Source: an uncultured Clostridia bacterium
Lineage (GTDB): Bacteria > Bacillota > Clostridia > Christensenellales > Aristaeellaceae
NCBI GenBank assembly: GCA_947167215.1
Contig: CAMVHE010000002.1
Span: forward strand, 37,820-101,819
Reading direction: 5' to 3'
Length of the DNA: 64,000 nt
In this document: positions 4,025-58,224 of the stretch, in pieces
Layout of the letters: each line of letters opens with the position of its first letter
Numbering within the stretch: position 1 is the stretch's first letter
Position numbers and translations under genes: made by a program
The notes under the pieces: model-generated
What the model was told of the DNA's origin: nothing
Databases searched by the model: none
Seen by the model: the letters and a program-made list of their open reading frames with translations, nothing else

Positions 4025-4046
4025 GCGGCATTCAGCCGCTTTTTTT
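4023..4046 (+). terminator. Rho-independent terminator of the XpaC-TPM operon
   Basis: Stem AAGCGGC/GCCGCTT with loop ATTCA followed by a run of T. The 5' arm begins within the TPM stop codon. Confidence 0.85.
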
Positions 4047-4091
4047 CTGTACATGGGAAGAAATAAAAATGCTCATTCGTATTATTAGAGG

Positions 4092-4616
4092 ATGGGAGTG
4101 AGATCTTTGGAAAGTAGCGCACAGAATTCCGGCGTTAAGCCGGATTTTGAAACGCTGTATCAGCAATATGGTACGGAAGTATTGCGAACTGCCTATTTCT
4201 ATCTTGGAGATCGCGGACGTGCGGAAGATGTATGCCAGGAAGTATTTGTCAAGTACTGGGGACATGAGAAGGAAGTGCTTCCCGGAAAAGAAAAAGCCTG
4301 GCTGATGACCGTGACCATCAACCAGTGCCGGGATCTGTGGCGGAGTGCCTGGCTGAAGCGTGTGGTACTTGGACCGCCGACCATGGAACTCATTCCCAGT
4401 GAAAAAGACATCATTGAAGAACGACAGGAAAAAGAGGAACTGATGGGAGCCGTTCAGAAGCTGCCCCAGCAGTTTCGGGAAGTGGTTCTGCTGTTTTATT
4501 ATCAGGGATTTGGCATCAGTGAAGTAGCAAAGATTCTCGGGATATCGGAAGGAACGGTTGCGAGCCGGTTGTCCCGGGCACGCAGTAAGCTGGAGAAAGC
4601 GCTGAAGGAGGTGTGA
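4092..4616 (+). CDS. ECF-type RNA polymerase sigma factor
   Basis: A 174-residue sigma-70 family protein of ECF size. Region 2 (about residues 14-80) contains ...RAEDVCQEVFVKYW... and region 4 (about 115-170) the helix-turn-helix ...ISEVAKILGISEGTVASRL.... There is no region 1 or 3. The start is uncertain: ATG 4092 has no spaced ribosome site, while TTG at 4107 lies 6-8 bases after GGGAGTG, so the mature protein may be five residues shorter. It is followed three bases later by a single-pass protein that is probably its anti-sigma factor. Confidence 0.9.
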   Translation: MGVRSLESSAQNSGVKPDFETLYQQYGTEVLRTAYFYLGDRGRAEDVCQEVFVKYWGHEKEVLPGKEKAWLMTVTINQCRDLWRSAWLKRVVLGPPTMELIPSEKDIIEERQEKEELMGAVQKLPQQFREVVLLFYYQGFGISEVAKILGISEGTVASRLSRARSKLEKALKEV

Positions 4617-4619
4617 GAG

Positions 4620-6913: not shown

Positions 6914-6923
6914 AAGTACCTCC

Positions 6924-6951
6924 AAAAAAAGCTGCCACAGTTTGTGGCAGC
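6924..6951 (-). terminator. Rho-independent terminator after queT-like gene
   Basis: On the minus strand a 9-bp stem GCTGCCACA/TGTGGCAGC with a 3-base loop is followed by TTTTTTT. It separates the QueT gene from the transglutaminase gene, whose ribosome site starts only a few bases later. Confidence 0.9.
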
Positions 6952-7029
6952 ATATGGCAATGGGACGTCAGGCAGACGGCGGGGCATCCTCATATGATAA
7001 AGCGGTCTGACCATGACGGGTATGCAGCG

Positions 7030-7530
7030 CTAGGACAACAGCTTTGGAGCGTATTTCTGGAGCGCTTTTACCAGTATGGTGCCAAAGAGATAGCAGGCGA
7101 TGGCCTCTCCCACAGCAACAGACAGCATGCAAAGAGTCAGGGGCATCGCGGGTGCATAACAGACGTGGACGACAATGCCGACCAGAATGCCGTTGGAAAT
7201 CACGGGCATGGAGGCGGCAAGCCAGTAACGCTTGCGCAGAACAGAAGTCAGAACGGCAGCAAGCAGGGTAGCACATGTCCCTACCACAATGTCGACCATC
7301 ATGGATCCGCCAAGAATATTGGCGAGCAGACAGCCAACGGTCACGCCCAGCACCGCCTCAGGCATCAGAATGGGAAGCAGAGTCAGCGCCTCGGAGACGC
7401 GGACCTGAATCTCTCCATAGCTGATAGGCGCCAGGAGCAGGGTAAGGACAGTGTACAGAGCGGCGATGATGGCTGCCCGTGTCAGAGAACGGGCATCTTG
7501 GGGGATATAACTGATTTTTTCCTTTTGCAT
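7030..7530 (-). CDS. queT: QueT-family transporter (predicted queuosine-precursor uptake)
   Basis: A 166-residue membrane protein with about five hydrophobic segments and the family pattern ...LTRAAIIAALYTVLT... at the N-terminus, followed by ...YGEIQVRVSEALTLLP.... QueT proteins are predicted substrate-binding components for uptake of queuosine precursors. ATG at 7530 is preceded by AAAGGTG. It ends in TAG, followed by the terminator at 6924-6951, so TAG is a genuine stop in this host. A 5-bp leader hairpin lies just upstream of the ribosome site, but I cannot match it to a preQ1 riboswitch. Confidence 0.85.
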   Translation of the reverse strand: MQKEKISYIPQDARSLTRAAIIAALYTVLTLLLAPISYGEIQVRVSEALTLLPILMPEAVLGVTVGCLLANILGGSMMVDIVVGTCATLLAAVLTSVLRKRYWLAASMPVISNGILVGIVVHVCYAPAMPLTLCMLSVAVGEAIACYLFGTILVKALQKYAPKLLS

Positions 7531-7577
7531 TGTTTACACCTTTCTGTACACTACAGGCAGTTATTCGACATTTCTGC

Positions 7578-7606
7578 GAATATGCCCCCCAGGAGAACAA
7601 TGTCAA
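7578..7606 (-). promoter_or_regulatory. Promoter of queT
   Basis: Minus strand TTGACA (7606-7601), 17-base spacer, ATATTC (7583-7578). The resulting leader would be about 45 nt. Confidence 0.7.
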
Positions 7607-7971
7607 GAGGAGACAGTTTTAGGCGCAGAAAAAGCGCCGGCCCGTAGTTTTGTTTATAGACTGGATGGTTTCGAACAGTCTTGGCGAGGATGCCGGGCCG
7701 TATTATAGCAAAAGGCCCCTTCCAATGCAAGCGGATCCTGCAGTGGAAAAAATTCCCGGAGGGGAAAGATGGTTCCGGAAAAGCTCCTTTCCGGACGGGG
7801 CATCCCGGAGAAGAGGACATTCAGAATGAAATGCAGTCGAAATTCCTTCTGCGGGCAAAAGAAAAAGGAATCTGTCATGGGCAGCAGCAGAGTGGGAATT
7901 GTGAAAGCACTGCAATTCTGGTAAAATGTACGGGTGTCAAAAGCAGCAGCGGAAAACAGGCGAGGAAATAG
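7607..7971. other. Intergenic stretch without recognised gene
   Basis: No convincing coding frame or structured RNA seen on either strand. A weak hairpin (GGCGC/GCGCC, 7622-7638) is present. Short open frames lack ribosome sites. Confidence 0.5.
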
Positions 7972-8142
7972 ACTTCTTTGCTGAAGCATGGACAGCGCTG
8001 CTTTTCGGAGATCGATTTGGAAGCATGGGCGGCAGATCATCTGCGGCAGGGAGATTTTGCGGACCGGTACGGTGCAATCAGCCTGCTGAGAGAGAACCTG
8101 GAATGCAAAAGATTTTATAAAAGGCTAGGATGTTATCCGTGA
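7972..8142 (+). pseudogene. Remnant resembling the C-terminus of a GNAT acetyltransferase
   Basis: In the frame ending TGA at 8140-8142 the last ~25 residues read ...ISLLRENLECKRFYKRLGCYP, which resembles the terminal '...N..A..FYEKLGF' segment of GNAT acetyltransferases. Upstream the frame closes at a TAG (7969-7971) without a full domain or a start with ribosome site. It overlaps the start of the GT-C gene. I read it as a decayed 3' fragment; a chance resemblance is possible. Confidence 0.35.
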
Positions 8143-11100
8143 ATAAGAAGAAAAGAATTGTAATCCTTGTTTTGGTGCTGTTATGCGCTGCAGTGGGAGT
8201 CTTTATGCTCCGCAGGCCGCATGCCTCGCAGGAGATGGCCGGAAATCTGGTCAGGAACGGAGATTTTTCCAGGGTGACCGAAGGAATGCCGGAAGACTGG
8301 GATACGGGCATGTGGGTGACCAGTTATGGTACTTCTTTCCTGGAAGCGACGAAGGAGGACGGCCGGGATGCTGTCCTCATCGAAAATGCTGCGGCCAATG
8401 ATGCCCGTTTCGAACAGACAATTCAGGTTGCTGAGAATGCGAATTACCTGCTGACTGCTCTGGTGAAGGCTGATTCATGCCGGGGCGGGGCGGGTGCCAA
8501 CCTGTCATTTCTGGGCGTTTATGGCAGCAGCGAAACGGTGTTTGATACGGAAGGAGAATGGAAAAGGCTCAGCGTTTATGCCCACACCGGAGAAGGACAG
8601 AAAGAAATAACCATTGCGGCCAGACTGGGAGGCTATGGTGCAGAGAGCATCGGACGGGCATGGTTTGCAGAGGTGTCTCTGACACAGGTCGAAGAAGTAC
8701 CGGTGGGAAGCACGGTTATAACGCTTCGGACGCCGGAGCCTGAGCAGAAAGCCGAAAACGAGGAAACGGGCGGGACAATTCTGCTTCTCTTTGCTTCTGC
8801 TGTTGCCTATGTCCTTATAGCTGCAATCATTCTGTATGCAGCCAGAGGAAGGGAAACAGGAACAGAGACTGCCGTTGTAGCGGTTTTGCTGGTACTGGCT
8901 ATGGCAATGCGCTTTGTACTGGCAGTACATGTACCCGGGTATGGGGTGGATATCAACTGCTTTACTGCCTGGGCGTTTAAAATGGCGGAAAACGGTCCCA
9001 TGGGCTTCTATAAGCCGGGATATTTCTGCGATTATCCCCCGGCCTATATGCTGGTATTGGGAATGATCGGCCTTGTAGCAAAGGGACTGTCTATCCCCTA
9101 TGACAGTGTTGCCATGCAGGTGCTGCTGAAGACGATTCCCATGCTTTGCGATCTTGCACTTGCCGTGATTCTTTACCTTGTGGCAGAGAAGCGGCAGGGC
9201 AGGAGGGCGGCTGCAGCATTGGCCATTCTGATCATTGTCAATCCGGCGCTTATTATCGCATCCTCCTGCTCGGGACAGATTGATGCCGTCGTTGCCGTGC
9301 AGATGGTGGCATTCCTGCTTGCAGCTTCTGCCGGTGACTGGCATGTTGCCATTCCGGTCTTTGCACTGGCGGTGCTGACCAAGCCACAGGCGGGTCTGCT
9401 GGCTCCGCTGGGCATTGCAGCACTCATCAAGGCAGTGAGAAAGTTACCGGAACAGCGAAAACATATCCTGCAGGGGCTTGGAGGCGGCGTACTGGTTACA
9501 CTGCTGATAGTCATCCCGTTCAGCATCCGCCAGGAATCTCCTTTCTGGTGGCTGGTGTACAAATACCGGGATACACTGAGCAGCTACCAGTATGCAACAC
9601 TGTCCACCGGAAATCTCATGTTTCTGCTGGGAGGAAACTGGAAGGAACTCGGGGAGGCCTTGGGCCCGGTGACCTTTGGGCAGATGGGCACCTTCCTGAT
9701 GGTACTCTGCTTCCTGTTCGGAATACTGGTTTACTGGAAATGCGAGGGGGAGCATGCTGTCTTCCTGGCGGCGTCGGTCACATTGCAGATGCTCTTCGCC
9801 TTTGGCGTAAAGATGCATGAGCGCTATGTGATTCCGGCACTTGTGCTGCTGTTTGCGGCTTATATCATGAGTGGAGACATCCGGCTGCTGATATCCGGCA
9901 TAGTGGCCAGCGCTGCTACATTCATCAATATCGGCATTGTTCTGGAGTATGACTATCTGATTGCCCCCAATCTGTGGGCGGGTTATCTCCTTGGCATTCT
10001 GCAGATCGGCTCCACCATACTGACCATGATGACAGCCGTAAGCCTGATGCGGGGGGAGGAACCGGTCCGGATCCTGTGGCGCAGACCGGAGGCCGCTGTC
10101 CGCCGGAAGGAAAGCGTTCCCCAAGAGGAGCAGCTGTTCCGGGATCTTTACCATCCAAAGGATGCCGGACTGCATATGAGCAGAAAAGATCTGGGGATAC
10201 TGGCAGCGGTCACCCTGATCTATTCGGCCGTTGCATTCTATGACCTTGGCGCAATGAAAGCCCCCCAGACGGGGTATACGTCCTCTGCGGCAGAGGAAAG
10301 TGTAACTCTGGACCTGGGATCCGTACAGAAGGACTTCAGGATCTACTACTACGGCGGAATCTCCGACACACAGTTTTCCTTTGCAGCGTCGGAGGATGGC
10401 GTTTCCTACTCAAAGGCGGTTCCTGCGTACTTTGACCGGGGCGAATGCTTCAAGTGGCAGGCCGTTCGGACGCCGTCGGTGGATGACCGGGGCGTGGTTA
10501 CCGGGGCAAGCGGCGGAATGCTGCTGTTCTCCGGACGATATGTACGCATTACCTTCAACGGGGCCGGCTCTGCCCTCTGGGAAGTGGCGGCGGTGGACGA
10601 AAACGGGAATGCACTGCCAGTGTCCGGAGCAGCTGCGGAAGGAGCGCTTTCAGGGCGGGAAGCAGATCCCAAGATGCTGGTGGATGAGCAGGACACGGTG
10701 CCGCTCAAACCAACATATCATAACAGCATGTATTTCGATGAGATATACCATGCAAGGACCGGATATGAACATGCCAACAGTCTTTCAACCTATGAAACTA
10801 CGCACCCGCCGCTGGGAAAGGTCTTCATGAGCCTGTGCATCCGTGCTCTGGGCATGACGCCTTTTGCGTGGCGTCTGGCAGGCACGGTTACCGGCATTCT
10901 CATGATTCCTGCAATTTACCTGCTGGCGCTGCAGCTCCTGCATGATAAGCGTGCGGCACTGCTGTGTGCGCTGCTCATGGCCTGTGACTGCATGCATTTT
11001 ACGCAGACCCGCATTGCGACTATTGACTCTTTCCCCGTATTGTTCATGATGCTCATGTTCTTTTTCATGGCCAGATGGATGCAGATGGATTTCTATGGGG

Positions 11101-12026
11101 ACAGTTTCCGGAAAACCCTGGTTCCGCTGGTTTTCTCCGGGATATTCATGGGACTGGCCATTGCATCCAAGTGGATCGGGTGCTATGGTGCCGTGGGGCT
11201 TGCCGTGCTATTCTTCATCCGCTACTTCCATCTTTACCGGCAGTATCTGGCGGCAGGAAAAGCGGCAAAGGATGCAAAAATGGAGACCGTAAGAAAGGTC
11301 TTCTGGCACCGTACGGGCGTGACAGCCGCCGTGTGCGTCGTTTCGTTTATTATCCTGCCCATCCTCATCTATGTTCTCAGCTATATTCCTTACCTTTCCT
11401 ACTTTGGAAAGGTGCAGTGGAATGCTAAGACCCTGGAGCGGATATGGGATGCCCAGGTGCTGATGTTTGATTATCACAGAAATCTGGTGGCAACCCATTA
11501 TTTCGCGTCACCCTGGTATGAATGGCCGCTGATCATCAAGCCGATGTGGTATTATTCGGGCTCCTTTAATGAACCGGGAATGGTATCCTCCATCATGGCC
11601 TTCGGAAATCCTGCAGTATGGTGGACGGGACTGGCAGCCATGATAGCCGTCTTGGGAATGAGCATCCGCTGCCGTCTGCTGCCGATGCTGGGAGTTCTGC
11701 CATACAGGGAAGAAGAAGAGGACAGCAGCTGCCTTACCGTGGTGGTGATCGGCTTCCTGTCTGCCTACCTTCCCTGGGTACTGGTTTCCAGACTTACCTT
11801 TATCTATCATTATTTTGCCAGTGTTCCCTTTATCATTCTTTCGACAGCCATCTGTCTGAAGGCCCTTTCCCGGCGCAGGCCGCGGATGGTCAGGGCAGCG
11901 GGGATTGTGCTGGTAATTCTCTCCATTATCCTCTTTATTGCTTTCTATCCGCTGGCTTCCGGCCACGAAGTACCCAGGGGATGGTGCGATGCAATGAACT
12001 GGTTTGACGGCTGGATGTGGTATTGA
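8130..12026 (+). CDS. Double GT-C glycosyltransferase with carbohydrate-binding-like and discoidin-like inserts
   Basis: A 1298-residue polytopic protein. Residues ~5-25 form a membrane anchor. Residues ~34-200 look like a beta-sandwich carbohydrate-binding module (...LVRNGDFSRVTEGMPEDW...). A first multi-pass GT-C module spans ~215-650, with an acidic loop motif ...GVDINCFTAWAF... near 273. A discoidin/F5-8C-like domain lies at ~720-830. A second GT-C module of protein-mannosyltransferase (PMT) type follows, with ...YFDEIYHARTGYE... near 867. Both modules keep an Asp/Glu loop motif, so both may be active with lipid-linked sugars. The start is ATG 8130 or GTG 8139; the latter has a better spaced AGGA. 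First gene of the polysaccharide locus. Confidence 0.85.
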   Translation: MLSVNKKKRIVILVLVLLCAAVGVFMLRRPHASQEMAGNLVRNGDFSRVTEGMPEDWDTGMWVTSYGTSFLEATKEDGRDAVLIENAAANDARFEQTIQVAENANYLLTALVKADSCRGGAGANLSFLGVYGSSETVFDTEGEWKRLSVYAHTGEGQKEITIAARLGGYGAESIGRAWFAEVSLTQVEEVPVGSTVITLRTPEPEQKAENEETGGTILLLFASAVAYVLIAAIILYAARGRETGTETAVVAVLLVLAMAMRFVLAVHVPGYGVDINCFTAWAFKMAENGPMGFYKPGYFCDYPPAYMLVLGMIGLVAKGLSIPYDSVAMQVLLKTIPMLCDLALAVILYLVAEKRQGRRAAAALAILIIVNPALIIASSCSGQIDAVVAVQMVAFLLAASAGDWHVAIPVFALAVLTKPQAGLLAPLGIAALIKAVRKLPEQRKHILQGLGGGVLVTLLIVIPFSIRQESPFWWLVYKYRDTLSSYQYATLSTGNLMFLLGGNWKELGEALGPVTFGQMGTFLMVLCFLFGILVYWKCEGEHAVFLAASVTLQMLFAFGVKMHERYVIPALVLLFAAYIMSGDIRLLISGIVASAATFINIGIVLEYDYLIAPNLWAGYLLGILQIGSTILTMMTAVSLMRGEEPVRILWRRPEAAVRRKESVPQEEQLFRDLYHPKDAGLHMSRKDLGILAAVTLIYSAVAFYDLGAMKAPQTGYTSSAAEESVTLDLGSVQKDFRIYYYGGISDTQFSFAASEDGVSYSKAVPAYFDRGECFKWQAVRTPSVDDRGVVTGASGGMLLFSGRYVRITFNGAGSALWEVAAVDENGNALPVSGAAAEGALSGREADPKMLVDEQDTVPLKPTYHNSMYFDEIYHARTGYEHANSLSTYETTHPPLGKVFMSLCIRALGMTPFAWRLAGTVTGILMIPAIYLLALQLLHDKRAALLCALLMACDCMHFTQTRIATIDSFPVLFMMLMFFFMARWMQMDFYGDSFRKTLVPLVFSGIFMGLAIASKWIGCYGAVGLAVLFFIRYFHLYRQYLAAGKAAKDAKMETVRKVFWHRTGVTAAVCVVSFIILPILIYVLSYIPYLSYFGKVQWNAKTLERIWDAQVLMFDYHRNLVATHYFASPWYEWPLIIKPMWYYSGSFNEPGMVSSIMAFGNPAVWWTGLAAMIAVLGMSIRCRLLPMLGVLPYREEEEDSSCLTVVVIGFLSAYLPWVLVSRLTFIYHYFASVPFIILSTAICLKALSRRRPRMVRAAGIVLVILSIILFIAFYPLASGHEVPRGWCDAMNWFDGWMWY

Positions 12027-12040
12027 TCCGGCATGCGTGC

Positions 12041-12046
12041 TATAAT
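12041..12046 (+). promoter_or_regulatory. Extended -10 element before the GT2/GT4 genes
   Basis: TATAAT preceded by TG one base earlier (TGCTATAAT), an extended -10. No good -35 is seen at 17 bases. It lies between the GT-C stop and the GT2 start, suggesting the glycosyltransferases have their own transcript. Confidence 0.55.
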
Positions 12047-12074
12047 TGACGAATAAATTTCGTGGGAGGAGCTT

Positions 12075-13112
12075 ATGATGCAGCTTCCGAATGTTTCTAT
12101 TGTTTTGCCGGTGCGCAACGAAGAGCGATATATTGAGGCTTGTGTAGCCTCAATTTTTGCCCAGGATTACCCGCAGGACAAGATGCAGGTGATTTTTGTG
12201 GATGGCCGCTCTGAAGACCGCACGGTGGAGCTGCTGAAGAAAGCGCAGACAGTACATCCGCAGATCAGCATATATGACAATCCCAACCGGACGGTGCCCT
12301 ATGCCATGAATATCGGCATTTCGCATTGCACGGCACCGGTCATGGTGCGGCTGGATGCCCACGCGGAGTATCCGCCGGACTATGTGCGGCTGTCGGTGGA
12401 AACCCTGCTGACCCGGGAATGCGAGAATGTGGGCGGTGTGTTTGATACGCGTGGCAGGGGTTTTGTCGGAGAGGCCGTGGCAGCCATGCTTCGGACGCCG
12501 CTGGGGGTGGGCAATACCGCCTACCGGCTCAGCGATAAGGAAGAGTATGTCGATACGGTATCCTTCGGCTGCTTTCATACAGACCTGTTTGCCCGCATTG
12601 GCGGTTTTGATGAGCGCCTGACCCGCAACCAGGATAATGAAATGAACTACCGCATCCGCAAAAACGGCGGAAAGGTGCTTTTCAATCCCCGGATCCGGGT
12701 TATCTATTACTGCCGGGATACCATGAAAGGTATTCTGAAAATGGGCTTCATGAACGGCAAGTGGAATGTCATTACCATGTATCTGGTTCCGGGATCCATG
12801 GGGGTACGGCACTTCGTGCCGCTTCTCTTTGTGCTTTCCACGATCTTCCTTGTACTGACAACCATCCTGTCCCATGGTTTCCTGCTTTTTTCCGGACTTC
12901 TTGGACTGGAATGGGGAGCGTACCTGCTTCTTGACTTTTTCTATTCCTTTGAGATTGCCAAGGAGAAAGGGCCGCGTTTCTTTCCTCTTGAGGTGATCCT
13001 TTATCCGCTGTTCCATTTTGCCTACGGATTCGGGTCCCTGCGGGGCATTACCGCTTTGCCGGCATTTATCCGGGATGAGCACCGAAAGAAGACGGAGGGA
13101 AAGCGGAAGTGA
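12075..13112 (+). CDS. GT2 family glycosyltransferase, ExoA-like
   Basis: A 345-residue protein. An N-terminal GT-A domain begins ...VSIVLPVRNEERYIEACVAS..., has ...FVDGRSEDRT..., an acidic ...VRLDAHAEYP... in place of DxD, and ...RNQDNEMNYRIRKNGG... as catalytic-base region. The C-terminal third has two to three membrane helices, as in ExoA-type succinoglycan transferases. ATG 12075 (or the next ATG) follows GGGAGGAGCTT. The end overlaps the next gene (GTGA). Likely adds a sugar to a lipid-linked intermediate on the cytoplasmic face. Confidence 0.85.
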   Translation: MMQLPNVSIVLPVRNEERYIEACVASIFAQDYPQDKMQVIFVDGRSEDRTVELLKKAQTVHPQISIYDNPNRTVPYAMNIGISHCTAPVMVRLDAHAEYPPDYVRLSVETLLTRECENVGGVFDTRGRGFVGEAVAAMLRTPLGVGNTAYRLSDKEEYVDTVSFGCFHTDLFARIGGFDERLTRNQDNEMNYRIRKNGGKVLFNPRIRVIYYCRDTMKGILKMGFMNGKWNVITMYLVPGSMGVRHFVPLLFVLSTIFLVLTTILSHGFLLFSGLLGLEWGAYLLLDFFYSFEIAKEKGPRFFPLEVILYPLFHFAYGFGSLRGITALPAFIRDEHRKKTEGKRK

Positions 13113-14209
13113 GAATACTGCATATCTGCCGCAATCTGGCAGGGTCCACGGTTTTCCCGCAGATGTTTGATGCCGTTGCGGAACTGGGGATTCCGCAGCT
13201 GATCTTTGCTCCCGAGGACAAACCGCAGAACCTGGGCAGGAATATTCCGGAACACGTGGAGACCCATTATGCCCTGACGCTGCGGAAAACAGACCCCATC
13301 TTCTTCTTCCGCAAATGGCAGCGCTCCCTGCCGGAAGTCCGTAAACTGGACCTGTCGGGAGTCACCATGATTCACGGGCATACGCTTTTTACCGACGGAT
13401 CCATTGCGATGCGGCTTGCCGGGGAACTGGGAGTTCCCTACATGGTCACTGTCCGCTATTCCGACCTGGCAGCAATATGGAAATATGAACCGCACCTGCG
13501 TCCGCTGGCCAGGCAGGTGCTTCGAGGCGCTTCCCGCGTGGTCTTTTTAAATGAAAAAGCCCGCCAGCAGGTGCTGAAAGGCTGGGTGAAAGGGGAGGAA
13601 GCTGCAAGAATTTCTCCCCGGACTGCCGTGATTCCCAACGGAATTTCCGATGTCTGGCTGGACGGACAGCCGCGCAGGAACCCGGGGGAGAAGGTTGTGG
13701 TAGGCTTTGCCGGCCTGATGAATGCCAGAAAGCGCCCGCTTGACGCGCTTTCGGCCGTGCATGCGGCAGGAGAAAAGTATGCCATGCTGGCCTGCGGAAC
13801 CGGTGCGCTTGCAGAGGAAATGCAGCGGCGCATGCGTCCGGGAGACCGGTATCTGGGACGGATCAGCGGAACGGAAGCCATGAAGGAATTCTACCGAAGC
13901 TGTGACATACTGCTTGTGCCTTCCGTAGCCGAGACTTTCGGAATGGTGTACCTTGAAGCCATGAGCCAGGGCCTTCCGGTTCTGTATACAAGAGATCAGG
14001 GCTTTGACGGCCAGTTCCCGGAAGGGGAGGTCGGCTATTCGGTGGAAAGCGGAAATATCGAAGAGCAGGCGTCCATGATCCGGAGGATTGCCGAAGGAGA
14101 TTATGCCCGCATGTCCCGGAACTGTGTGGAGCATGCTTCCTCTTTCCGCTGGGAGGTAATAGCGCAGCGGTGGCGGGAACTGTATCAGTCAGTGGAGGAT
14201 GAAAAATGA
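13109..14209 (+). CDS. GT4 family glycosyltransferase
   Basis: A 366-residue soluble GT-B enzyme. An N-terminal Rossmann half contains ...IHGHTLFTDG.... The C-terminal half contains ...VVGFAGLMNARKRPLDAL... and the E-x7-E retaining-transferase motif in ...VAETFGMVYLEAMSQG.... The GTG start overlaps the GT2 stop; the end overlaps the next GT4 start (ATGA). Its substrate cannot be read from sequence. Confidence 0.85.
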   Translation: MRILHICRNLAGSTVFPQMFDAVAELGIPQLIFAPEDKPQNLGRNIPEHVETHYALTLRKTDPIFFFRKWQRSLPEVRKLDLSGVTMIHGHTLFTDGSIAMRLAGELGVPYMVTVRYSDLAAIWKYEPHLRPLARQVLRGASRVVFLNEKARQQVLKGWVKGEEAARISPRTAVIPNGISDVWLDGQPRRNPGEKVVVGFAGLMNARKRPLDALSAVHAAGEKYAMLACGTGALAEEMQRRMRPGDRYLGRISGTEAMKEFYRSCDILLVPSVAETFGMVYLEAMSQGLPVLYTRDQGFDGQFPEGEVGYSVESGNIEEQASMIRRIAEGDYARMSRNCVEHASSFRWEVIAQRWRELYQSVEDEK

Positions 14210-15420
14210 GTACATATCGCATACTCATGATGATCCATCGGCTGGATGATGCCTCTCCTTACTGTTTTTTTGTTCATGAACAGGCGAAAGCTCTGCGGGA
14301 GATGGGACATGACGTAGTGGTGATTTCTCCCGTGTGCGAGATGCCTCTGGCGGGGCTTCTGGGAAGGCGTTCTCCGGTTTTTGAAAGGACGCCTGAAAAG
14401 GATGTGCTGGATGGCATTCCCATCTATTTCCCCCGCTGTCACACCTATGGAAACCGGGCGGAACGGATACTGGGCGGCAGCCTGATGGCCCGGGCGATTC
14501 TGCCGATTGCCAGAAGACTGCATGCAGAAAAGCCTTTTGACCTGATCCATGCACATATGCTGGACAGAGACGGGCATGCGGGGCTGCTGGTGGGAAAAAA
14601 GCTGCACCTGCCGGTTGCCCTGACCGTCCACGGGACGGATGTCCTTCACTATTTTGAACCGGGGAAAAAACCGCTTCCCCGCAATGCGGCAATTGCCGCG
14701 GAAGTAGATGCCCTGATGGCGGTTTCCTCCAGTCTGATGAAACGGGTGCAGCCCTACAGGGCCGCGGATGCGATCTCCGAAGTGGTGCCAAACGGTGTGG
14801 ACCTTTCCCTGGTACCCGATAAAACGAAGAACCGTCCGGGGGCCATTGTTTCCATCGGAACGCTGAAAGAGCGCAAATGCATGGACCGGACAATCGATGC
14901 ATTTGCACACCTGGCGCCGGATTATCCCTCTGCAACGCTCAAGATTGTCGGCGTTGGGGAGCTGGACGGCGTCCTGCGGGAACAGGTGGAAAGGCTGCAC
15001 ATGACGGACAGAATTACTTTTACCGGAGGCATTTCGCATCCGGCGGTGCTGTCGCTTCTGGCTGACAGTGACATGATGGTTCTTCCCAGCTGGGGAGAAG
15101 GATACGGCATCGTTTATATTGAGGCCATGGCTGCAGGATGCATTGCAGTGGGTGCACAGGGAGAAGGAATCGAGGACACCATTACGGACGGTGTCAACGG
15201 TTTTCTGATTCCTGCCGGAGATACGGCAGCAACGGAAGCTGTGATGCGGAAGGTGCTCGACAGCCCTCAGAAATATGCTGCATTGCGGGAACGCGGCAGG
15301 CAGGATGCAAGACACCTGACCTGGCGGCGCAATGCGCAGCAGGTAACGGAGATTTATCGCAGGATGCTTGCACACTCTGCGGTCAGGGAGGATGCATATG
15401 CAAAAGAAAAAAGGCATTGA
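14206..15420 (+). CDS. GT4 family glycosyltransferase
   Basis: A 404-residue GT-B retaining transferase: ...LIHAHMLDRDGHAGLL..., ...VPNGVDLSLV..., and the E-x7-E motif in ...WGEGYGIVYIEAMAAG.... It is more typical of the WcaL/EpsF kind than its upstream neighbour, with which it is translationally coupled. The 3' end contains the ribosome site and start of the polymerase-like gene, overlapping it by 23 bases. Confidence 0.88.
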   Translation: MSTYRILMMIHRLDDASPYCFFVHEQAKALREMGHDVVVISPVCEMPLAGLLGRRSPVFERTPEKDVLDGIPIYFPRCHTYGNRAERILGGSLMARAILPIARRLHAEKPFDLIHAHMLDRDGHAGLLVGKKLHLPVALTVHGTDVLHYFEPGKKPLPRNAAIAAEVDALMAVSSSLMKRVQPYRAADAISEVVPNGVDLSLVPDKTKNRPGAIVSIGTLKERKCMDRTIDAFAHLAPDYPSATLKIVGVGELDGVLREQVERLHMTDRITFTGGISHPAVLSLLADSDMMVLPSWGEGYGIVYIEAMAAGCIAVGAQGEGIEDTITDGVNGFLIPAGDTAATEAVMRKVLDSPQKYAALRERGRQDARHLTWRRNAQQVTEIYRRMLAHSAVREDAYAKEKRH

Positions 15421-53532: not shown

Positions 53533-53580
53533 TGGTGCACCCAGAGGGGCTCGAACCCGCGGCCCTTTGATTCGAAGTCA
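53533..53580 (-). pseudogene. Displaced 3' half of tRNA-Arg (attachment site remnant)
   Basis: Minus strand sequence from the anticodon loop through T-arm and acceptor to CCA, without any 5' half. The acceptor TGGGTGC-A-CCA would pair with the GCACCCA of the intact tRNA at 58164. It has a C-U mismatch in the T-stem and a different discriminator (A, versus G in the intact copy), so the element carries its own version of the 3' half. Confidence 0.9.
53563..53580 (-). repeat. Attachment core, left copy
   Basis: 18-bp sequence identical to 58118-58135, covering the anticodon stem-loop region of tRNA-Arg. Confidence 0.92.
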
Positions 53581-53624
53581 GGAGCACCAAAGGAAACTAA
53601 ATTTACATATAAATATAAGGAATT

Positions 53625-53689
53625 CCATTTGATTATTTACGAAATTGACACTTTGATTTTATGCATTGATTAATGCAGGAATCAAATGG
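53625..53689. repeat. Left arm-type repeats (TTTGATT)
   Basis: CCATTTGATT (53625-53634), CTTTGATT (53651-53658) and inverted AATCAAATGG (53680-53689), all related to the TTTGATT of the core. Likely integrase arm-binding sites; matching copies lie at the right end. Confidence 0.6.
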
Positions 53690-53714
53690 AGTATATCATA
53701 TCATATCAGTTAAG

Positions 53715-54173
53715 TCAATCTGTTAATTTTATGATTTTGACCTCATATAGAAGAGACATTACATCAATGTTCAATAATGCCCCTTGCGAAACTTTGCGTT
53801 TTTCATTGTGATATTTAATCTTATACGGATAATTTGTAAGATAATCTCTAACATCTTTAAGAGATATAACATAACAGGTCGAATCTACTGAATCAACATA
53901 ATACAAATAATCTGCCTTGCAATAGTCAATCCAACCGCATTTATTCTAATGTACATCGCTTAATAACTCTATAAATAAGTTGCGTGTGGAATGAATCCAC
54001 GAATCATATTTAACTTCAATACTTATAGTTGCTAATCCTTTAATCACAATGAAGTCGATATCCTAACTCCAATAATGCGAATTTTTTGATACATCAATAA
54101 CACAATAACCTTCTTTTTCTAAATAATGCTTTACTAACTATTCGCCTTTATTCGGCTTTTCACAATCCAACAT
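53715..54173 (-). CDS. TAG-recoded PD-(D/E)XK-like nuclease
   Basis: A 152-codon frame from ATG 54173 to TGA 53715-53717, preceded by AAGGGGGAG seven bases upstream. It is open only if TAG is read: codons 12 (54140-54138), 37 (54065-54063) and 76 (53948-53946). With Gln there the protein reads ...KGEQLVKHYLEKEGY..., ...WSQDIDFIVIKG..., ...ISIEVKYDSW..., ...NLFIELLSDV..., i.e. Glu, Asp-Ile-Asp and Glu-x-Lys arranged as in PD-(D/E)XK nuclease-fold phage proteins, with TAG falling in the Gln of Gln-Asp-Ile-Asp. No internal TAA or TGA. TAG=Gln is inferred, not proven. Confidence 0.82.
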
Positions 54174-54226
54174 TAATAATCTCCCCCTTATTATATGTTA
54201 TTTATATATGTATTTATATATTATGG

Positions 54227-54265
54227 CTGAAATGGTTGCTTGAATGAATCCAACAATCATTTCAG
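54227..54265 (-). promoter_or_regulatory. Hairpin between the two recoded genes
   Basis: CTGAAATG/CATTTCAG with inner GTTG/CAAC, just after the stop of the winged-helix gene. No U-tract; possibly an RNA processing or operator element. Confidence 0.5.
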
Positions 54266-54269
54266 GTAA

Positions 54270-54614
54270 TTAACCTGAATCTGTTTCAGGTTTTACACTA
54301 TTTAATATAGCATCAAAATTTACTGTGATGCTATGATAGGGAATATGGCTTAACCAACCGCGCTCAATAAGACTATTTCTTGCAGAAATATATGACCTTT
54401 CGCATAATCCCGTTCTATTTAAAATCCACTATTGACTAACACCAAAATCAGGCTTTGTGCCAATCAATACAATCATAATCCTTAATTGTGCGGACGCATT
54501 GCCGAGTTCTCTAAATATAATATCCATTAACTATTGAGATAATGCATAATACTAAATTCCAATCTATTTACTTCCATTGTGTTTAAGTATTGGTGCTTTT
54601 AATAATGAATTCAT
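54270..54614 (-). CDS. TAG-recoded winged-helix protein
   Basis: A 114-codon frame from ATG 54614 to TAA 54270-54272. In-frame TAG at codons 17, 21, 28 and 62 and no other internal stop. With Gln: ...SAQLRIMIVLIGTKPDFGVSQ(Q)WILNRTGL..., ...SYISARNSLIERGWLSH..., a helix-turn-helix followed by a wing, as in phage/plasmid replication or regulatory proteins. Two TAGs directly follow CAA codons. Ribosome site AAGGCGG six bases upstream. DNA binding is inferred from the fold pattern. Confidence 0.82.
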
Positions 54615-54703
54615 AACATACCGCCTTTTCCGTAATAACCGTTAATCCTGAAAATTATAGTATTCTTTGCTATTTAAGAGCAAAATATAAATTACATATA
54701 AAT

Positions 54704-55003
54704 TTATGCACCAATACTTTTTATTGCTGAACTGATGCCACTATATATAGCGTTGCTTAATTGGGAAGAATCAATCTATATATTTTTTGAAATATCATTA
54801 ATCACTCTGCGATATACTTCGTCTTGAATGCCTTTAATTATTAAAGATTCTTGTTGCTATAATTCTTTGTTATATGCAGATTGCATTGCATCGTTTCTTG
54901 ATAGATTCAGTAAAACGGATAAACTGTCAGATGCATAACCCGAATAAATCAAATGACGGTTATGTGCCAATGCTCCATAATACTATTTATTAATCCTATT
55001 CAC
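54704..55003 (-). CDS. TAG-recoded helical protein of unknown function
   Basis: A 99-codon frame from GTG 55003 to TAA 54704-54706, with GAGGAG about ten bases upstream. In-frame TAG at codons 7, 49 and 76, none else. The protein is polar and helical (...SLSVLLNLSRNDAMQSAYNKEL(Q)QQ..., ...IKGIQDEVYRRVINDISKN...). No family recognised. It overlaps the ribbon-helix-helix gene by 14 bases, the tight packing of a real operon. Confidence 0.78.
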
Positions 55004-55163
55004 TGCTATCAAACTCCTCTTCAAATACATCACGGTCTTTTCTTATCATTTGCCTTATAATATATGAAATAGGCAATCCTTCGTGTGAGGATTTACATGT
55101 TAAATAATTATAATCCTAATCACATAATCTAACAGTTATTCTTTTTGTTTTAGTTGTATTCAA
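54990..55163 (-). CDS. TAG-recoded ribbon-helix-helix protein
   Basis: A 57-codon frame from TTG 55163 to TAA 54990-54992. In-frame TAG at codons 16 (55118-55116) and 56 (54998-54996); the second may be the real stop, as only one codon separates it from TAA. It reads ...TKTKRITVRLCD(Q)DYNYLTCKSS..., ...GLPISYIIRQMIRKD..., a short strand plus two helices as in Arc/CopG repressors. TTG is chosen because GAAAGGA lies eight bases upstream and overlaps the ATG at 55172. Probably the element's autoregulator. Confidence 0.8.
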
Positions 55164-55329
55164 AACAATCATCCTTTCAAACAATAAATTATTTATCTGT
55201 CAATATAATATAAAAAATAGTAAAGTGTAATTGTCATAAAATGCCCGACACAATAGCAAAAAAATTATACCGTCTTTTCGAATGCAAACCACTTTTAGAA
55301 AGAGTAGAGACCACATCATACGCATAAAA

Positions 55330-55373
55330 GAGGGAGGAAAAATTATTTTCACAAAAGTCCCGCCCCCCTATTA
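55330..55373 (-). terminator. Imperfect terminator after the resolvase
   Basis: Minus strand GGGCGGGA pairs imperfectly with TCCTCCC across an A/T-rich loop, followed by TCTTTTAT. Confidence 0.35.
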
Positions 55374-55495
55374 TATATAACATAGAAAGTTTATTAAAAG
55401 AGATTACAACCTTTTATAAACACATAATGTATTATTTCCTCGTATATTTCAGAAGACAATTATTTCATCATTCTTTCAAACCCTCCATTAAAATA

Positions 55496-55518
55496 GTGGT
55501 AAGTGTTAAACTTACCAC
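55496..55518. repeat. Palindrome in the element control region
   Basis: Perfect 9-bp inverted repeat GTGGTAAGT-GTTAA-ACTTACCAC. It shares the GTAAGT/ACTTAC half with the palindrome at 56474-56490; either a hairpin or an operator. Confidence 0.6.
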
Positions 55519-55616
55519 CTTATTATAGTCAGTTGTGTTTATGACCTTCGTTAAAATTAAACATTATGAATGGAATATAGTGGGGACAATTTATACACAT
55601 ACTTTATAATACATCA

Positions 55617-56177
55617 TCATAATCCCATTTCTTGAACTCTGCGATAGAATGTATTTGGTTTTAGGTTGAGATGCTTCATTGTTTCTGTTGCAGTTTGAAG
55701 ACCTTCACGCCAACGCTTACACTCACGCTTCATAGCAGATTCATCTATTGCTAACTTGGGCTTGCCTTTATACTTACCTTGCTCTTTTGCGAGGGCAATA
55801 CCTTCTGCTTGTCTTCCTAATATGTATTCTCTTTCGAGTTCAGCCATTGCACCAAAGACAGTAAGCATAAACTTGCCTGTTGGTGTTCTTGTATCCAAAG
55901 ATTCTTTCTTGCTGATAAATTCTGCGCCTTTCCCATTTATGGTTTCTACGATAGTTAGTAAATCTTTTGTATTTCTTGCTATACGACTAATAGACTCGAC
56001 TACAATAATATCTCCTTGACGAATAAAAGAAAGCATCTCTTTTAACTGAGGTCTATCAGCATTCTTTCCACTTTGCTTATCTAAAAAGACCTTTTCAATG
56101 CCTTCATCCTCAAAAGCGCGTATTTGGCGTGCTTCGTTTTGCTCCTTGGTGCTAACCCTCGCATAACCTACCTTCAT
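55617..56177 (-). CDS. Serine recombinase (resolvase/invertase type)
   Basis: A 186-residue resolvase: catalytic Ser10 in ...VGYARVSTKEQNEARQ..., ...DIIVVESISRIARNTKDLL..., ...GKFMLTVFGAMAELEREYI..., and a C-terminal helix-turn-helix ...TETMKHLNLKPNTFYRRVQ.... Full length for the family. No in-frame TAG; ends in TGA. RBS GGAGGAGGG. A resolvase beside a tyrosine integrase may resolve dimers or invert a segment of the element. Confidence 0.93.
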   Translation of the reverse strand: MKVGYARVSTKEQNEARQIRAFEDEGIEKVFLDKQSGKNADRPQLKEMLSFIRQGDIIVVESISRIARNTKDLLTIVETINGKGAEFISKKESLDTRTPTGKFMLTVFGAMAELEREYILGRQAEGIALAKEQGKYKGKPKLAIDESAMKRECKRWREGLQTATETMKHLNLKPNTFYRRVQEMGL

Positions 56178-56207
56178 TGTTAAACCCTCCTCCGCTGTGT
56201 TGCAATA

Positions 56208-56236
56208 AGTATAATACCATTATTGAAATATGTCAA
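56208..56236 (-). promoter_or_regulatory. Promoter of the resolvase gene
   Basis: Minus strand TTGACA (56236-56231), 17-base spacer, TATACT (56213-56208). Confidence 0.85.
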
Positions 56237-56434
56237 TATCATAAATCCAACTTAAATGAAATAGTTTTTTCATATGTCAATGAAGTATAGTCAAATGACA
56301 TACTATTGATACATCTTATCTAATAGTGGTATGCGATTGGTAAGTTGAAAGATTAAAAAATTTTTATTATAATCTATTATGCACATAAGAAAAAACATCA
56401 AAGAGATAATGATTATTATCAAAACTTATCTATA

Positions 56435-56463
56435 TTGACATATACTATATACTTTATTATAAT
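56435..56463 (+). promoter_or_regulatory. Promoter of the small plus-strand gene
   Basis: TTGACA (56435-56440), 17-base spacer, TATAAT (56458-56463): full consensus, the strongest promoter in the element. Confidence 0.9.
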
Positions 56464-56473
56464 TACATACAAA

Positions 56474-56490
56474 AGTGTAAGTCTTACACT
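56474..56490 (+). promoter_or_regulatory. Operator palindrome over the transcription start
   Basis: AGTGTAAG-T-CTTACACT, a perfect 8-bp inverted repeat ten bases after the -10, where a bound repressor would block initiation. The ribbon-helix-helix protein of the element is a candidate ligand (inference). Confidence 0.65.
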
Positions 56491-56515
56491 GAATTATGAA
56501 AGGAGTATATTAATT

Positions 56516-56857
56516 ATGGCAGAATTCAAACCACTCGACCCTTATAGTGAAGAATATAAAAAGGCAACTCTCGAAATGTTAGTTAATGATGCTGTTTCAC
56601 GCAAGAATATTGAGGCACTCAAATGGCTACAAACTGAAAGTGCAAAGAAAAGCGAACGAACTCGAAATGGTGTAAAGATTGAAGTTTCACAGAATATAAA
56701 TGCCATTCGTGCAAACTATGCAAAAAAGTTTTTAGGTTATAAACCAATGAGCAAGCAATCTGCGGAAGCATTGAGAAAGCGTAAGCAAGAAAAAGCAGAA
56801 CAAGCGCGTAAAGCACTGTTTGATAGAGCATTTGAACAGTTAAAGAGCAAGAAATAA
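56516..56857 (+). CDS. Small charged helical protein of the element
   Basis: A 113-residue protein starting at ATG 56516, ten bases after AAAGGAG. It is Lys/Ala/Glu-rich and helical (...PYSEEYKKATLEMLVNDAVSRKN..., ...KKFLGYKPMSKQSAEALRKRKQE...). No family recognised. Uses CAA and CAG for Gln with no TAG, ends in TAA. It is driven by the element's best promoter and an operator, so it is likely an early or maintenance function such as a directionality factor. Confidence 0.75.
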   Translation: MAEFKPLDPYSEEYKKATLEMLVNDAVSRKNIEALKWLQTESAKKSERTRNGVKIEVSQNINAIRANYAKKFLGYKPMSKQSAEALRKRKQEKAEQARKALFDRAFEQLKSKK

Positions 56858-56894
56858 CCACTACCATATAACTAAAATATATAAGAAATTAAAA

Positions 56895-56944
56895 CATATA
56901 AGAAATGCGTCTAAATCATGCGATTTAGACGCATTTCTTATATG
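56895..56944. terminator. 22-bp perfect hairpin between convergent element genes
   Basis: Arms 56895-56916 and 56923-56944 are perfect complements with a six-base loop (an inner C-G pair is possible). One arm abuts the integrase TAG stop. On the minus strand it is followed by TTTTAATTT. Acts as bidirectional terminator. Confidence 0.85.
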
Positions 56945-57919
56945 CTACATATCGTTTCTTTTAACACTTTGTGTTCGAGATTGAGACTTTTTTAGTCTAT
57001 CAAGAGGATTATAATCTTCAAATCCTTCCTTTAAATCTTCTGCAAACATATTTACATAGTTTCTCGTCATATCGAGTGAGGTATGACCTAATAACTTTTG
57101 AAGTCTAAATACATCACCTGTATTTCTAATCCAATCTTTTGCAAAAGTATGTCTTAATGCATGAACACTGGTCTTATCTACACCACGACTTCTGTTGTAA
57201 TGGTTGATGCTATGCTTCAATGCATTAACCGTTAATTTTTCTTCACCTATATTACAGAATAGATAATCATCATCGGTTGCATCACTCCTCCACATTCGAA
57301 CATATTCTTTAAGAACAATAGATAAAGCCTTTGATAATGGAGTGATATATGCTTTATTGGTTTTTGTTTGCCTAACGGTGATTTCTTCTTTTCGATAATT
57401 TACATCACCTAATTTGATTTCTATAACTGTTCCTGCTCTATGTCCTGTTGCAAGAATCCAATTTATAATAGCCCAACTCCGCCACTCTACGAAATTAGCG
57501 TATTTTGATGGTTTGGCTATCAACTTTAACTTTTCTTCATCTGTATAGGTTTCAACGATAGTTTGTTGCTGTGTTATCTGCTTAATCTTAAATCCCTTTG
57601 TGATATATCCACGCTCGATACACCAATACACGAATACTCTAATATCTCTAACATAATGGTTAAGAGTAGTGGCTTTCATATCTTCTCTTAAATAGTGATT
57701 TTGAAAAGAGTAAAGATAACTTTGCTCTACATCATCACAATTTAAAGAAAGATGCGAATCTTCGAGATACTTAATCCATTTATTGACGCTAAACTCCATA
57801 CCTTTGACGGTTGCAGGAGATTTATTCATTGATTTTTTTTCTTCAATGAATTCTTCAAGTGCATCATTAAGAGTCAGTTTCTGCATTGATGCTCTTGTGA
57901 TTTTTCGCTTAACGCCCAT
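56945..57919 (-). CDS. int: Tyrosine recombinase (integrase) of the element
   Basis: A 324-residue phage-type integrase. SAM-like N-terminal domain (about 10-120), catalytic domain with Arg in ...ILATGHRAGTVIEIKL..., His-x-x-Arg in ...VHALRHTFAKDWI..., ...LQKLLGHTSLDMTRNYV... and the Tyr nucleophile in NYV. RBS AGGAGG before ATG 57919. It ends in TAG directly followed by a long hairpin; if TAG were read through, about 26 codons to another TAG and a few more to TAA would be added. It has no in-frame TAG, unlike the cargo genes. Confidence 0.95.
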   Translation of the reverse strand: MGVKRKITRASMQKLTLNDALEEFIEEKKSMNKSPATVKGMEFSVNKWIKYLEDSHLSLNCDDVEQSYLYSFQNHYLREDMKATTLNHYVRDIRVFVYWCIERGYITKGFKIKQITQQQTIVETYTDEEKLKLIAKPSKYANFVEWRSWAIINWILATGHRAGTVIEIKLGDVNYRKEEITVRQTKTNKAYITPLSKALSIVLKEYVRMWRSDATDDDYLFCNIGEEKLTVNALKHSINHYNRSRGVDKTSVHALRHTFAKDWIRNTGDVFRLQKLLGHTSLDMTRNYVNMFAEDLKEGFEDYNPLDRLKKSQSRTQSVKRNDM

Positions 57920-57973
57920 CTTAAAACCTCCTAATCTTATACATCTTTGGATTTTGTAGGGGTCAAATCGTCA

Positions 57974-58031
57974 AATCAAATGGACTAAATCAGGCCTTTT
58001 GATTAGGCTAAAATGTGGGCTAATCAAAATG
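57974..58031. repeat. Right arm-type repeats (TTTGATT)
   Basis: AATCAAATGG (57974-57983), CTTTTGATT (57996-58004) and TAATCAAAATG (58021-58031), matching the left-end set and the core. Likely integrase arm sites. Confidence 0.6.
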
Positions 58032-58040
58032 AAAAATGAA

Positions 58041-58084
58041 TTGAAAGAAAAAGGATAGATACCTTGATTTATATGGTATCTATC
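58041..58084 (-). terminator. Element-borne terminator for tRNA-Arg
   Basis: Minus strand perfect 10-bp stem GATAGATACC/GGTATCTATC followed by CTTTTTCTTTC, just after the tRNA CCA. The element supplies both a new tRNA 3' half and a new terminator. Confidence 0.88.
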
Positions 58085-58087
58085 ACA

Positions 58088-58164
58088 TATGGCGCACCCA
58101 ACAGGGCTCGAACCTGTGACCCTTTGATTCGAAGTCAAATACTCTATCCAACTGAGCTATGGGT
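58088..58164 (-). tRNA. tRNA-Arg (TCG), integration target
   Basis: Complete cloverleaf with encoded CCA: acceptor GCACCCA/TGGGTGC, D-arm TAGCTCAGTTGGATAGAG, anticodon stem TTTGA/TCAAA with loop CTTCGAA (anticodon TCG), T-arm ACAGG-TTCGAGC-CCTGT. The 3' part from the anticodon on is the copy carried by the integrated element. Confidence 0.96.
58118..58135 (-). repeat. Attachment core, right copy
   Basis: 18-bp sequence identical to 53563-53580, inside the intact tRNA-Arg. Confidence 0.92.
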
Positions 58165-58224
58165 GCGGATGTCTGAAAAACAGATAATCTGTTTGCAACC
58201 TGTAATTATTCTAATCAGACATCC
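58165..58224. repeat. Inverted repeat upstream of tRNA-Arg
   Basis: GGATGTCTGA at 58165-58174 is the exact complement of TCAGACATCC at 58215-58224. It immediately precedes the tRNA 5' end; role unknown. Confidence 0.5.

What the first reader, a model, noticed from the sequence alone, without database searches (positions are those of the whole stretch)
53715..55163. Four adjacent genes open only if TAG is a sense codon (amber recoding)
On the minus strand of a region that looks noncoding, four consecutive frames (55163-54990, 55003-54704, 54614-54270, 54173-53715) each have a start with a ribosome site, protein-like sequence and a TAA or TGA end. Inside them lie 12 TAG codons (11 if the one two codons before a TAA is a real stop) and no internal TAA or TGA in about 420 codons. 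Decay would produce all three stops and frameshifts. Gln in these genes is otherwise encoded by about ten CAA and no CAG, and several TAGs fall where Gln fits. This is the pattern of TAG-to-Gln recoding known from crAss-like and Lak phages, here in a ~4.6 kb integrated element of a host that uses TAG as stop.
Basis: partly seen in the sequence, partly recalled or inferred. Interest (0 to 1): 0.95.

Follow-up and report, generated by a model that had tools for sequence, protein, structure and literature searches.

The report
Amber-locked mobile element in gut bacteria
A small DNA element inserted in a bacterial chromosome carries four genes full of the stop word TAG, which is likely read there as the amino acid glutamine and would be readable only when a virus that rewrites the genetic code infects the cell, so the element is predicted to be a hitchhiker that wakes up only with such viruses.

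Summary
Four adjacent minus-strand genes (53715-55163) hold 12 in-frame TAG and no TAA or TGA in 418 codons. They lie in a 4.56-kb element between a tRNA-Arg gene and its displaced 3' half. The element's integrase, resolvase and third open gene have no TAG (0 of 26 Gln codons; cassette 12 of 22). Three other genomes of the family carry TAG-bearing versions (8, 3 and 2 TAG, no TAA/TGA); another has a TAG-free sibling. At DNA level 12 of 26 TAG columns face CAA/CAG in a relative (two on weak alignments), and a substitution calculation gives Gln 0.97. The genes are under purifying selection. The host has release factor 1, ends some genes in TAG and shows no CUA-anticodon tRNA. The replication-type gene and the integrase have relatives in code-15 phages. 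Best reading: a mobile element, probably a satellite of code-15 phages, whose replication and nuclease genes can be made only while such a phage makes the cell read UAG as Gln. Recoding is strong; helper and gate are inferred. No report of recoded satellites or plasmids appeared in my paper searches.

The parts
53563..58137 (.). integrated mobile element, 4,557 bp from repeat to repeat; 31.9% GC against 53.3% in the left flank
   Evidence: direct repeat, GC
53533..53580 (.). displaced host 3' half of tRNA-Arg (att copy); the identical core at 53563-53580 and 58120-58137 lies in the anticodon arm
   Evidence: anticodon arm by reading the sequence
58090..58166 (-). tRNA-Arg(TCG), integration site
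   Evidence: ARAGORN, Infernal
56945..57919 (-). tyrosine integrase, 324 aa, 11 Gln codons and no TAG; 37% identical over 294 aa to the integrase of code-15 phage record L008 (L102)
   Evidence: Pfam PF00589 1.1e-29
56516..56857 (+). 113-aa protein of unknown function, no TAG; consensus promoter TTGACA-17-TATAAT at 56435-56463
55617..56177 (-). serine resolvase/invertase, 186 aa, no TAG; relatives at 79-89% identity in G185, G057 and G130
   Evidence: Pfam PF00239 1.5e-42
54990..55163 (-). recoded gene 1: ribbon-helix-helix DNA-binding protein; TAG at 55116-55118 and 54996-54998
   Evidence: weak Pfam/PHROG repressor matches; BLAST relatives in G185 and G130, profile match in G288 at 7e-4
54704..55003 (-). 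recoded gene 2: 99-aa protein of unknown function; TAG at 54983-54985, 54857-54859, 54776-54778
   Evidence: relative in G185 (E 7e-15), which in turn matches G288 (E 3e-9) and G288 matches G057 (E 1e-12)
54270..54614 (-). recoded gene 3: helix-turn-helix, replication-initiator-like protein; TAG at 54564-54566, 54552-54554, 54531-54533, 54429-54431
   Evidence: weak HTH_36 and phrog_270 matches here, better in the G185 copy; 49 homologues
53715..54173 (-). recoded gene 4: nuclease-like protein (UPF0102/NERD-like; PD-(D/E)XK type is recalled); TAG at 54138-54140, 54063-54065, 53946-53948
   Evidence: UPF0102 7.3e-5 and NERD 2.3e-4, at or 0.1 bit under cut-off; 32 homologues
55495..55519 (-). 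terminator-like hairpin GGTGGTAAG...CTTACCACT between resolvase and cassette; a similar hairpin precedes the cassette in G185
54261..54279 (.). TTCAGGT-TAATT-ACCTGAA palindrome at the end of gene 3 (possible initiator binding site, untested)

Best explanation
This is a 4.56-kb mobile element integrated in a tRNA-Arg gene whose integrase and resolvase are TAG-free while its four other genes carry 12 in-frame TAG and no TAA or TGA, likely read as glutamine, so that these genes would be translated only while a code-15 phage in the same cell supplies UAG decoding, and the element is predicted to be a satellite or passenger of such phages. Shown by sequence: the boundaries, the two classes of genes, the TAG-only pattern in four copies from four genomes, the turnover of TAG against CAA/CAG, purifying selection, host RF1, and no CUA tRNA found. 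Inferred: in an uninfected cell RF1 stops all four genes early (first TAG at codons 16, 7, 17 and 12), and the element stays quiet in the chromosome; when a TAG-recoding phage enters, the repressor-like RHH protein, the HTH initiator and the nuclease become translatable, the element excises and replicates, and may be packaged by the phage.
For: TAG-only stops: 12/0/0 here, and 8/0/0, 3/0/0 and 2/0/0 in G185, G288 and G130. Two gene classes inside one element: TAG 12 of 22 Gln codons in the cassette against 0 of 26 in integrase, resolvase and ORF113, Fisher p 9e-6; the three genes tested in code-15 phage record L008 show the same split (terminase 11 TAG of 19, portal 6 of 13, integrase 0 of 13). 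TAG faces CAA/CAG in 5 of 18 window-G185 columns against 14 of 784 for other codons, p 3e-5; calculated identity Gln 0.97, Glu 0.03 with TAG masked during alignment. pN/pS 0.32 (nuclease), 0.33 (HTH), 0.43 (RHH), 0.65 (gene 2) over the read-through length. Few TAG positions are shared: one nuclease column with G185, RHH column 16 with G130 and 49 between G130 and G185, so TAG came and went while TAA/TGA did not appear. Host: prfA above cut-off, 4 of 41 long window ORFs outside the element end in TAG, 47 tRNAs and none CUA. HTH relatives with 1, 2 and 1 TAG sit in phage records L006, L007 and L008, which open under code 15 (L006 in part), and the integrase is 37% identical to that of L008. Proteins 98 and 99% identical to HTH and nuclease have 4,610 bp as their longest contig, about the element's size.
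Against: No peptide, RNA or particle evidence. No suppressor tRNA was found in the element, in three hosts or in the phage records searched (three cut-off tRNA matches of G288 were not read), so the source of decoding is unknown; a published survey found matching tRNAs in only 13% of 285 TAG-recoded phage genomes (PMC9610469, passages). The element has no recognised packaging, capsid-remodelling or helper-interference gene. Of 26 TAG columns 14 have no CAA/CAG partner, two of the other 12 rest on weak alignments, and one G288 TAG faces Tyr in three relatives. The G288 RHH has no BLAST match to that of the window. Four of the seven viral HTH loci (L009-L012) show little gain under code 15, and three of five further 20-kb stretches of the L006 phage gain only 6-9 points. 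Initiator and nuclease assignments rest on weak profile matches. The protein collection may itself read TAG as Gln, so Gln in its entries was not counted.
Confidence: 0.6

Rival explanations
1. Relic: the cassette was captured from a code-15 phage and is no longer expressed; it stays open only because decay is recent.
For: The HTH gene and integrase family occur in code-15 phage records; the G130 copy is decayed.
Against: Resolvase and cassette come in the same order in G000 and G185 (two extra genes between in G185) with synonymous sites at or near saturation (dS 1.4 or more), pN/pS near 0.3 for HTH and nuclease and still no TAA/TGA; most TAG sites differ between copies.
Confidence: 0.12
2. 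Host-based suppression: the hosts themselves read UAG as Gln at a useful rate (for example an unassembled CUA tRNA, or tRNA-Gln(CUG) misreading), so the element uses a low constant level of read-through and no phage gate exists.
For: Neither the element nor the phage records examined show a CUA tRNA; the MAGs are 77-96% complete.
Against: RF1 is present and some host genes end in TAG; no CUA tRNA among 47 matches of G000, or among 80 read of 83 matches of G185 and G288; element genes outside the cassette have no TAG, which constant read-through would not require.
Confidence: 0.15
3. Alarm: the cassette is a defence module, translated only when a recoding phage takes over translation; the nuclease then attacks phage or host DNA.
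For: Nuclease-like fourth gene; the gate would sense exactly these phages.
Against: No PADLOC match for 7 element proteins; initiator-like HTH and RHH genes point to element replication; HTH relatives occur in phage records.
Confidence: 0.1
4. Chance or assembly artefact in a noncoding stretch.
For: Single MAG, AT-rich region.
Against: Simulations, protein homologues and domain matches across the TAGs, copies in other MAGs.
Confidence: 0.01

Closest known systems
TAG-recoded (genetic code 15) phages of gut bacteria; code 15 validated by peptides in two crAss-like phages (PMC9523058, passages read)
   Same: TAG inside genes with no TAA/TGA; in record L008 also no CAG and a TAG-free integrase beside recoded terminase and portal genes.
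   Different: Here a 4.56-kb element with no recognised structural genes, living in the chromosome of an RF1+ host.
Phage satellites, in particular PICMIs (PMC10803314, abstract and outline read)
   Same: Reduced gene content, genes for excision and replication, none for capsid remodelling.
   Different: The proposed gate is the genetic code; other host group and integration site; no helper shown.
Phage records L007/L008 (IMG/VR, 25-26 kb) and L006 (156 kb)
   Same: Carry the HTH initiator-like gene with TAG; L008 has a related integrase.
   Different: Phages with terminase and portal genes (L007, L008); the genes read next to their HTH are others.
Engineered suppressor-tRNA feedforward loop against leaky expression (PMC7969014, search listing only)
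   Same: Amber codons make expression depend on a suppressor tRNA.
   Different: Synthetic; here the arrangement is natural and no tRNA was found.

Membership tests
Code-15 (TAG=Gln) recoded genes | frames closed under table 11 and open with TAG sense; no internal TAA/TGA | tested here: met
Code-15 (TAG=Gln) recoded genes | TAG columns correspond to Gln in relatives | tested here: met
   12 of 26 columns face CAA/CAG, two on weak alignments; 14 do not; Gln 0.97
Code-15 (TAG=Gln) recoded genes | CUA suppressor tRNA in the same genome or cell (usual, not universal) | tested here: not met
   none in element, host or phage records; MAGs and viral records may be incomplete, and a survey found such a tRNA in only 13% of 285 TAG-recoded phage genomes
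Code-15 (TAG=Gln) recoded genes | peptides spanning TAG | not testable with these tools
   needs mass spectrometry
Phage satellite | integrated element with integrase and att sites | tested here: met
Phage satellite | own replication module | tested here: inconclusive
   HTH matches phage initiators weakly here (0.017), better in the G185 copy (2.2e-5)
Phage satellite | lacks structural genes, has packaging or capsid-interference functions | tested here: inconclusive
   no structural gene and no interference gene recognised among 7 proteins
Phage satellite | depends on a helper phage for induction and transfer | not testable with these tools
   needs infection experiment
Mobilizable element or plasmid | relaxase | tested here: not met
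   no relaxase match among 7 element proteins; NikA-like matches to RHH proteins only below cut-off

The most novel reading that the evidence does not exclude
A family of code-locked satellites: mobile elements that store their replication genes in the phage's genetic code, so the host cannot translate them and only infection by a code-15 phage unlocks excision, replication and spread. The genetic code itself is the induction signal.
Probability: 0.5. Interest if true: 0.94.

Novelty: new variant of a known kind. Interest (0 to 1): 0.86.

Why it matters
Stop-codon recoding is known in phages but did not turn up in satellites or plasmids in the papers I could search. If right, recoded phages have their own recoded parasites, the genetic code acts as a switch sensed by a third party, and standard gene callers miss these elements inside bacterial genomes. 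The element is also a small test bed for how UAG becomes Gln when no suppressor tRNA can be found, an open question for many TAG-recoded phages.

Tried and rejected
Random decay or C-to-T damage: would turn CAA into TAA and CGA into TGA too; none seen in the four TAG-bearing copies. Another residue: Gln favoured over Glu 0.97 to 0.03; but when the Gln partners are dropped (hand lists of the unmasked alignment) Glu, Asn, Ser and Lys come before Gln, so this calculation rests on the five or six Gln columns of that pair. A host that has reassigned TAG: RF1 present, TAG stops used. A suppressor tRNA hidden in the element: none at a permissive Infernal threshold. Gln at TAG columns in the protein collection: not used as evidence, because a phage terminase with 11 TAG had 5,976 relatives there at 1e-60, the 120 listed all 411-413 aa long, so entries may be code-15 translations. 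Fragments P0010 and P0077-P0079 end where a relative has Gln, which suggests stops there.

No relatives of the HTH (phages, plasmids) or the nuclease (phages) in the annotated collections. Gene 2 and the window integrase found no viral relatives. A TAG-recoded prophage with an L008-like terminase in this family: matches in 128 of 308 genomes, none with a TAG inside the matched stretch, one with a TGA. HTH profile in the class: own genome and two weak matches of 391; nuclease profile in the order: own genome and three weak matches of 396. The nuclease was not found in phage record G1044, a search without positive control. No PDB sequence relatives of HTH or nuclease. Promoter-like sites are no more frequent than in shuffles (25 against 26.0). 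Structure models could not be made.

Full report
The observation. Reading the minus strand of 53715-55163 with TAG as sense opens four consecutive genes of 57, 99, 114 and 152 aa. They contain 12 TAG, no TAA and no TGA in 418 codons; positional composition predicts 16.7 TAA and 6.8 TGA. In 20,000 order-2 Markov simulations no sequence gave three such frames of 95 aa or more. The fourth frame matches UPF0102, NERD and UPF0180 at 7e-5 to 3e-4 over residues 8-66, which span two TAGs (at, 0.1 bit under and 4 bits under the cut-offs).

The element. A 48-nt direct repeat, 85% identical, lies 4,557 bp apart; the right copy is inside tRNA-Arg(TCG) and the identical core is its anticodon arm. The inside is 31.9% GC against 53.3% in the left flank. 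From the tRNA inwards come a tyrosine integrase, a 113-aa gene on the plus strand with a consensus promoter, a serine resolvase with a near-consensus promoter (promoter-like sites overall are no more frequent than in shuffles), a terminator-like hairpin, and the cassette. Integrase, resolvase and the 113-aa gene use 26 Gln codons and no TAG; the cassette uses 10 CAA, no CAG and 12 TAG (Fisher p 9e-6).

The host. The window is part of a 3.83-Mb MAG with 96% completeness and 7% contamination. It has prfA above the curated cut-off. Of 41 long non-overlapping ORFs of the window outside the element 4 end in TAG, 13 in TAA and 24 in TGA. Infernal finds 47 tRNAs. ARAGORN of them (42 distinct sequences), none with CUA; the two that it skipped read as Ile(UAU) and Lys(UUU) by my reading of the alignments. 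In the permissive search of the element no tRNA but tRNA-Arg was listed.

Other copies. The HTH profile matched 3 of 308 genomes of the family. G185 (contig CACWUV010000008.1, titled uncultured Clostridiales bacterium RUG10934) has resolvase, two further TAG-free genes, then RHH, gene 2, HTH and nuclease with 2, 2, 1 and 3 TAG; its contig begins inside the element. G288, same genus, has RHH (2 TAG), gene 2 (1 TAG) and HTH (none) at 57% GC on a contig whose first and last 141 bases are identical, so apparently a circle of 15,040 bp. A resolvase search over the 308 genomes (20 with a match at 1e-40) led to G130, a decayed copy with an RHH of 2 TAG near tRNA-Arg(ACG), and G057, a TAG-free sibling with RHH and gene 2. 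Of the 20, I read the neighbourhoods of G057 and G130 besides those of G000 and G185. An RHH profile matched 6 of 280 genomes: the four TAG-bearing ones with 2 TAG each and two weak ones without. In all, 25 TAG and no TAA or TGA in 1,222 codons of the TAG-bearing copies. Similarity is clear between window, G185 and G130; for gene 2 it runs window-G185 (7e-15), G185-G288 (3e-9), G288-G057 (1e-12); the RHH of G288 and G057 have no BLAST match to that of the window.

What TAG encodes. I aligned only sequences whose DNA I could read. Of 26 distinct TAG columns over the four genes, 12 face CAA or CAG in at least one relative: RHH 22; gene 2 33, 58, 90; HTH 39, 84, 85, 95, 96, 174; nuclease 16, 47 (alignment columns; two columns beyond the apparent stop of L015/L016 were left out). 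RHH 22 and gene 2 58 rest on weak alignments. The last RHH TAG faces CAG but not in the masked alignment and is not counted. Fourteen have no such partner, and RHH column 34 of G288 faces Tyr in three relatives. Between window and G185 with TAG masked, TAG faces CAA/CAG in 5 of 18 columns and other codons do so in 14 of 784 (p 3e-5). A BLOSUM62 calculation on those 18 partners gives Gln 0.97, Glu 0.03. Using Gln as the reading, pN/pS between the two copies is 0.32 for the nuclease and 0.33 for the HTH, with synonymous sites near saturation.

Link to code-15 phages. The HTH alignment gave 7 viral loci from 50 stretches that matched its patterns. L007 and L008 rise from 59% and 64% to 91% and 97% coding coverage under code 15; the other four besides L006 rise little (85-93% to 92-97%). 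L008 has 11 TAG in its terminase and 6 in its portal, and the HTH genes of L007 and L008 hold 2 and 1 TAG. In the 156-kb record of L006 two of five further 20-kb stretches read rise from 48% to 92% and from 62% to 98%, the other three by 6 to 9 points; its HTH gene holds 1 TAG and ends in four copies of a repeat of about 21 bp, as in initiator genes that carry their own origin (the comparison with lambda O is recalled). L008 has a TAG-free integrase, 37% identical to that of the window. None of the three phage records showed a CUA tRNA; L007 and L008 showed no tRNA at all.

How it likely works. In the uninfected host RF1 ends all four genes within 7 to 17 codons. The TAG-free integrase and resolvase can be made at any time. 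When a code-15 phage makes UAG mean Gln, the RHH protein, the initiator-like HTH protein and the nuclease can be made, and the element would excise, replicate and perhaps be packaged. The two-class layout resembles that of L008. Steps shown: element, recoding pattern, conservation, host background. Steps inferred: translation as Gln in vivo, helper identity, replication function, packaging.

What is known. Code 15 has been shown with peptides in two crAss-like phages (PMC9523058, passages). A survey of 285 TAG-recoded gut phage genomes found a matching tRNA in 13% (PMC9610469, passages), and a jumbo phage study infers that some borrow suppressor tRNAs from hosts or competing phages (PMC13037316, passages). 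PICMIs show how few genes a satellite needs (PMC10803314, abstract and outline). Searches for recoding together with satellites, mobile elements, prophages or plasmids showed no report of such elements among the listed titles and abstract starts (three of them listed only part of their hits: 15 of 19, 10 of 40, 10 of 5,263). Most subscription papers are not in the library, among them a main survey of recoded phages that I recall from 2022.

Verdict. The recoding is close to certain on sequence grounds. The satellite and gating mechanism is the best account of it but untested.

Noticed in passing
L013 (G288:C103), 1-15181: Apparently circular 15,040-bp element with a fused Toprim-DnaB primase-helicase (11892-13943), a 548-aa protein and a large serine recombinase, carrying the TAG-bearing RHH and gene 2.
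   Followed up: partly
L102 5552-6490, L008, L104: 25-26 kb phage records with code-15 structural genes and no tRNA match; L008 has a TAG-free integrase. Its terminase has 5,976 relatives at 1e-60 in the protein collection.
   Followed up: partly
L094 1501-1645: Phage tRNA with a long insertion in its anticodon loop that by eye could itself fold as a tRNA (nested tRNA).
   Followed up: no
L006 5290-5430: Four copies of a repeat AGGTAATACCACATTACCTA inside the 3' end of the HTH gene of a phage that is code 15 in part, an origin-like iteron array.
   Followed up: partly
window 56895-56944: Perfect 23-bp inverted repeat between the integrase and the 113-aa gene, a strong bidirectional terminator candidate.
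   Followed up: no
L053 8271-8501 and L054 3811-3966: Clusters of low-scoring tRNAs (Ile UAU, Arg CCU, Lys) in the host, possibly from prophages.
   Followed up: partly
protein collection, P0077-P0079 and P0010: Nuclease and HTH fragments that end where a relative has Gln, suggesting further relatives with stops at Gln columns.
   Followed up: no
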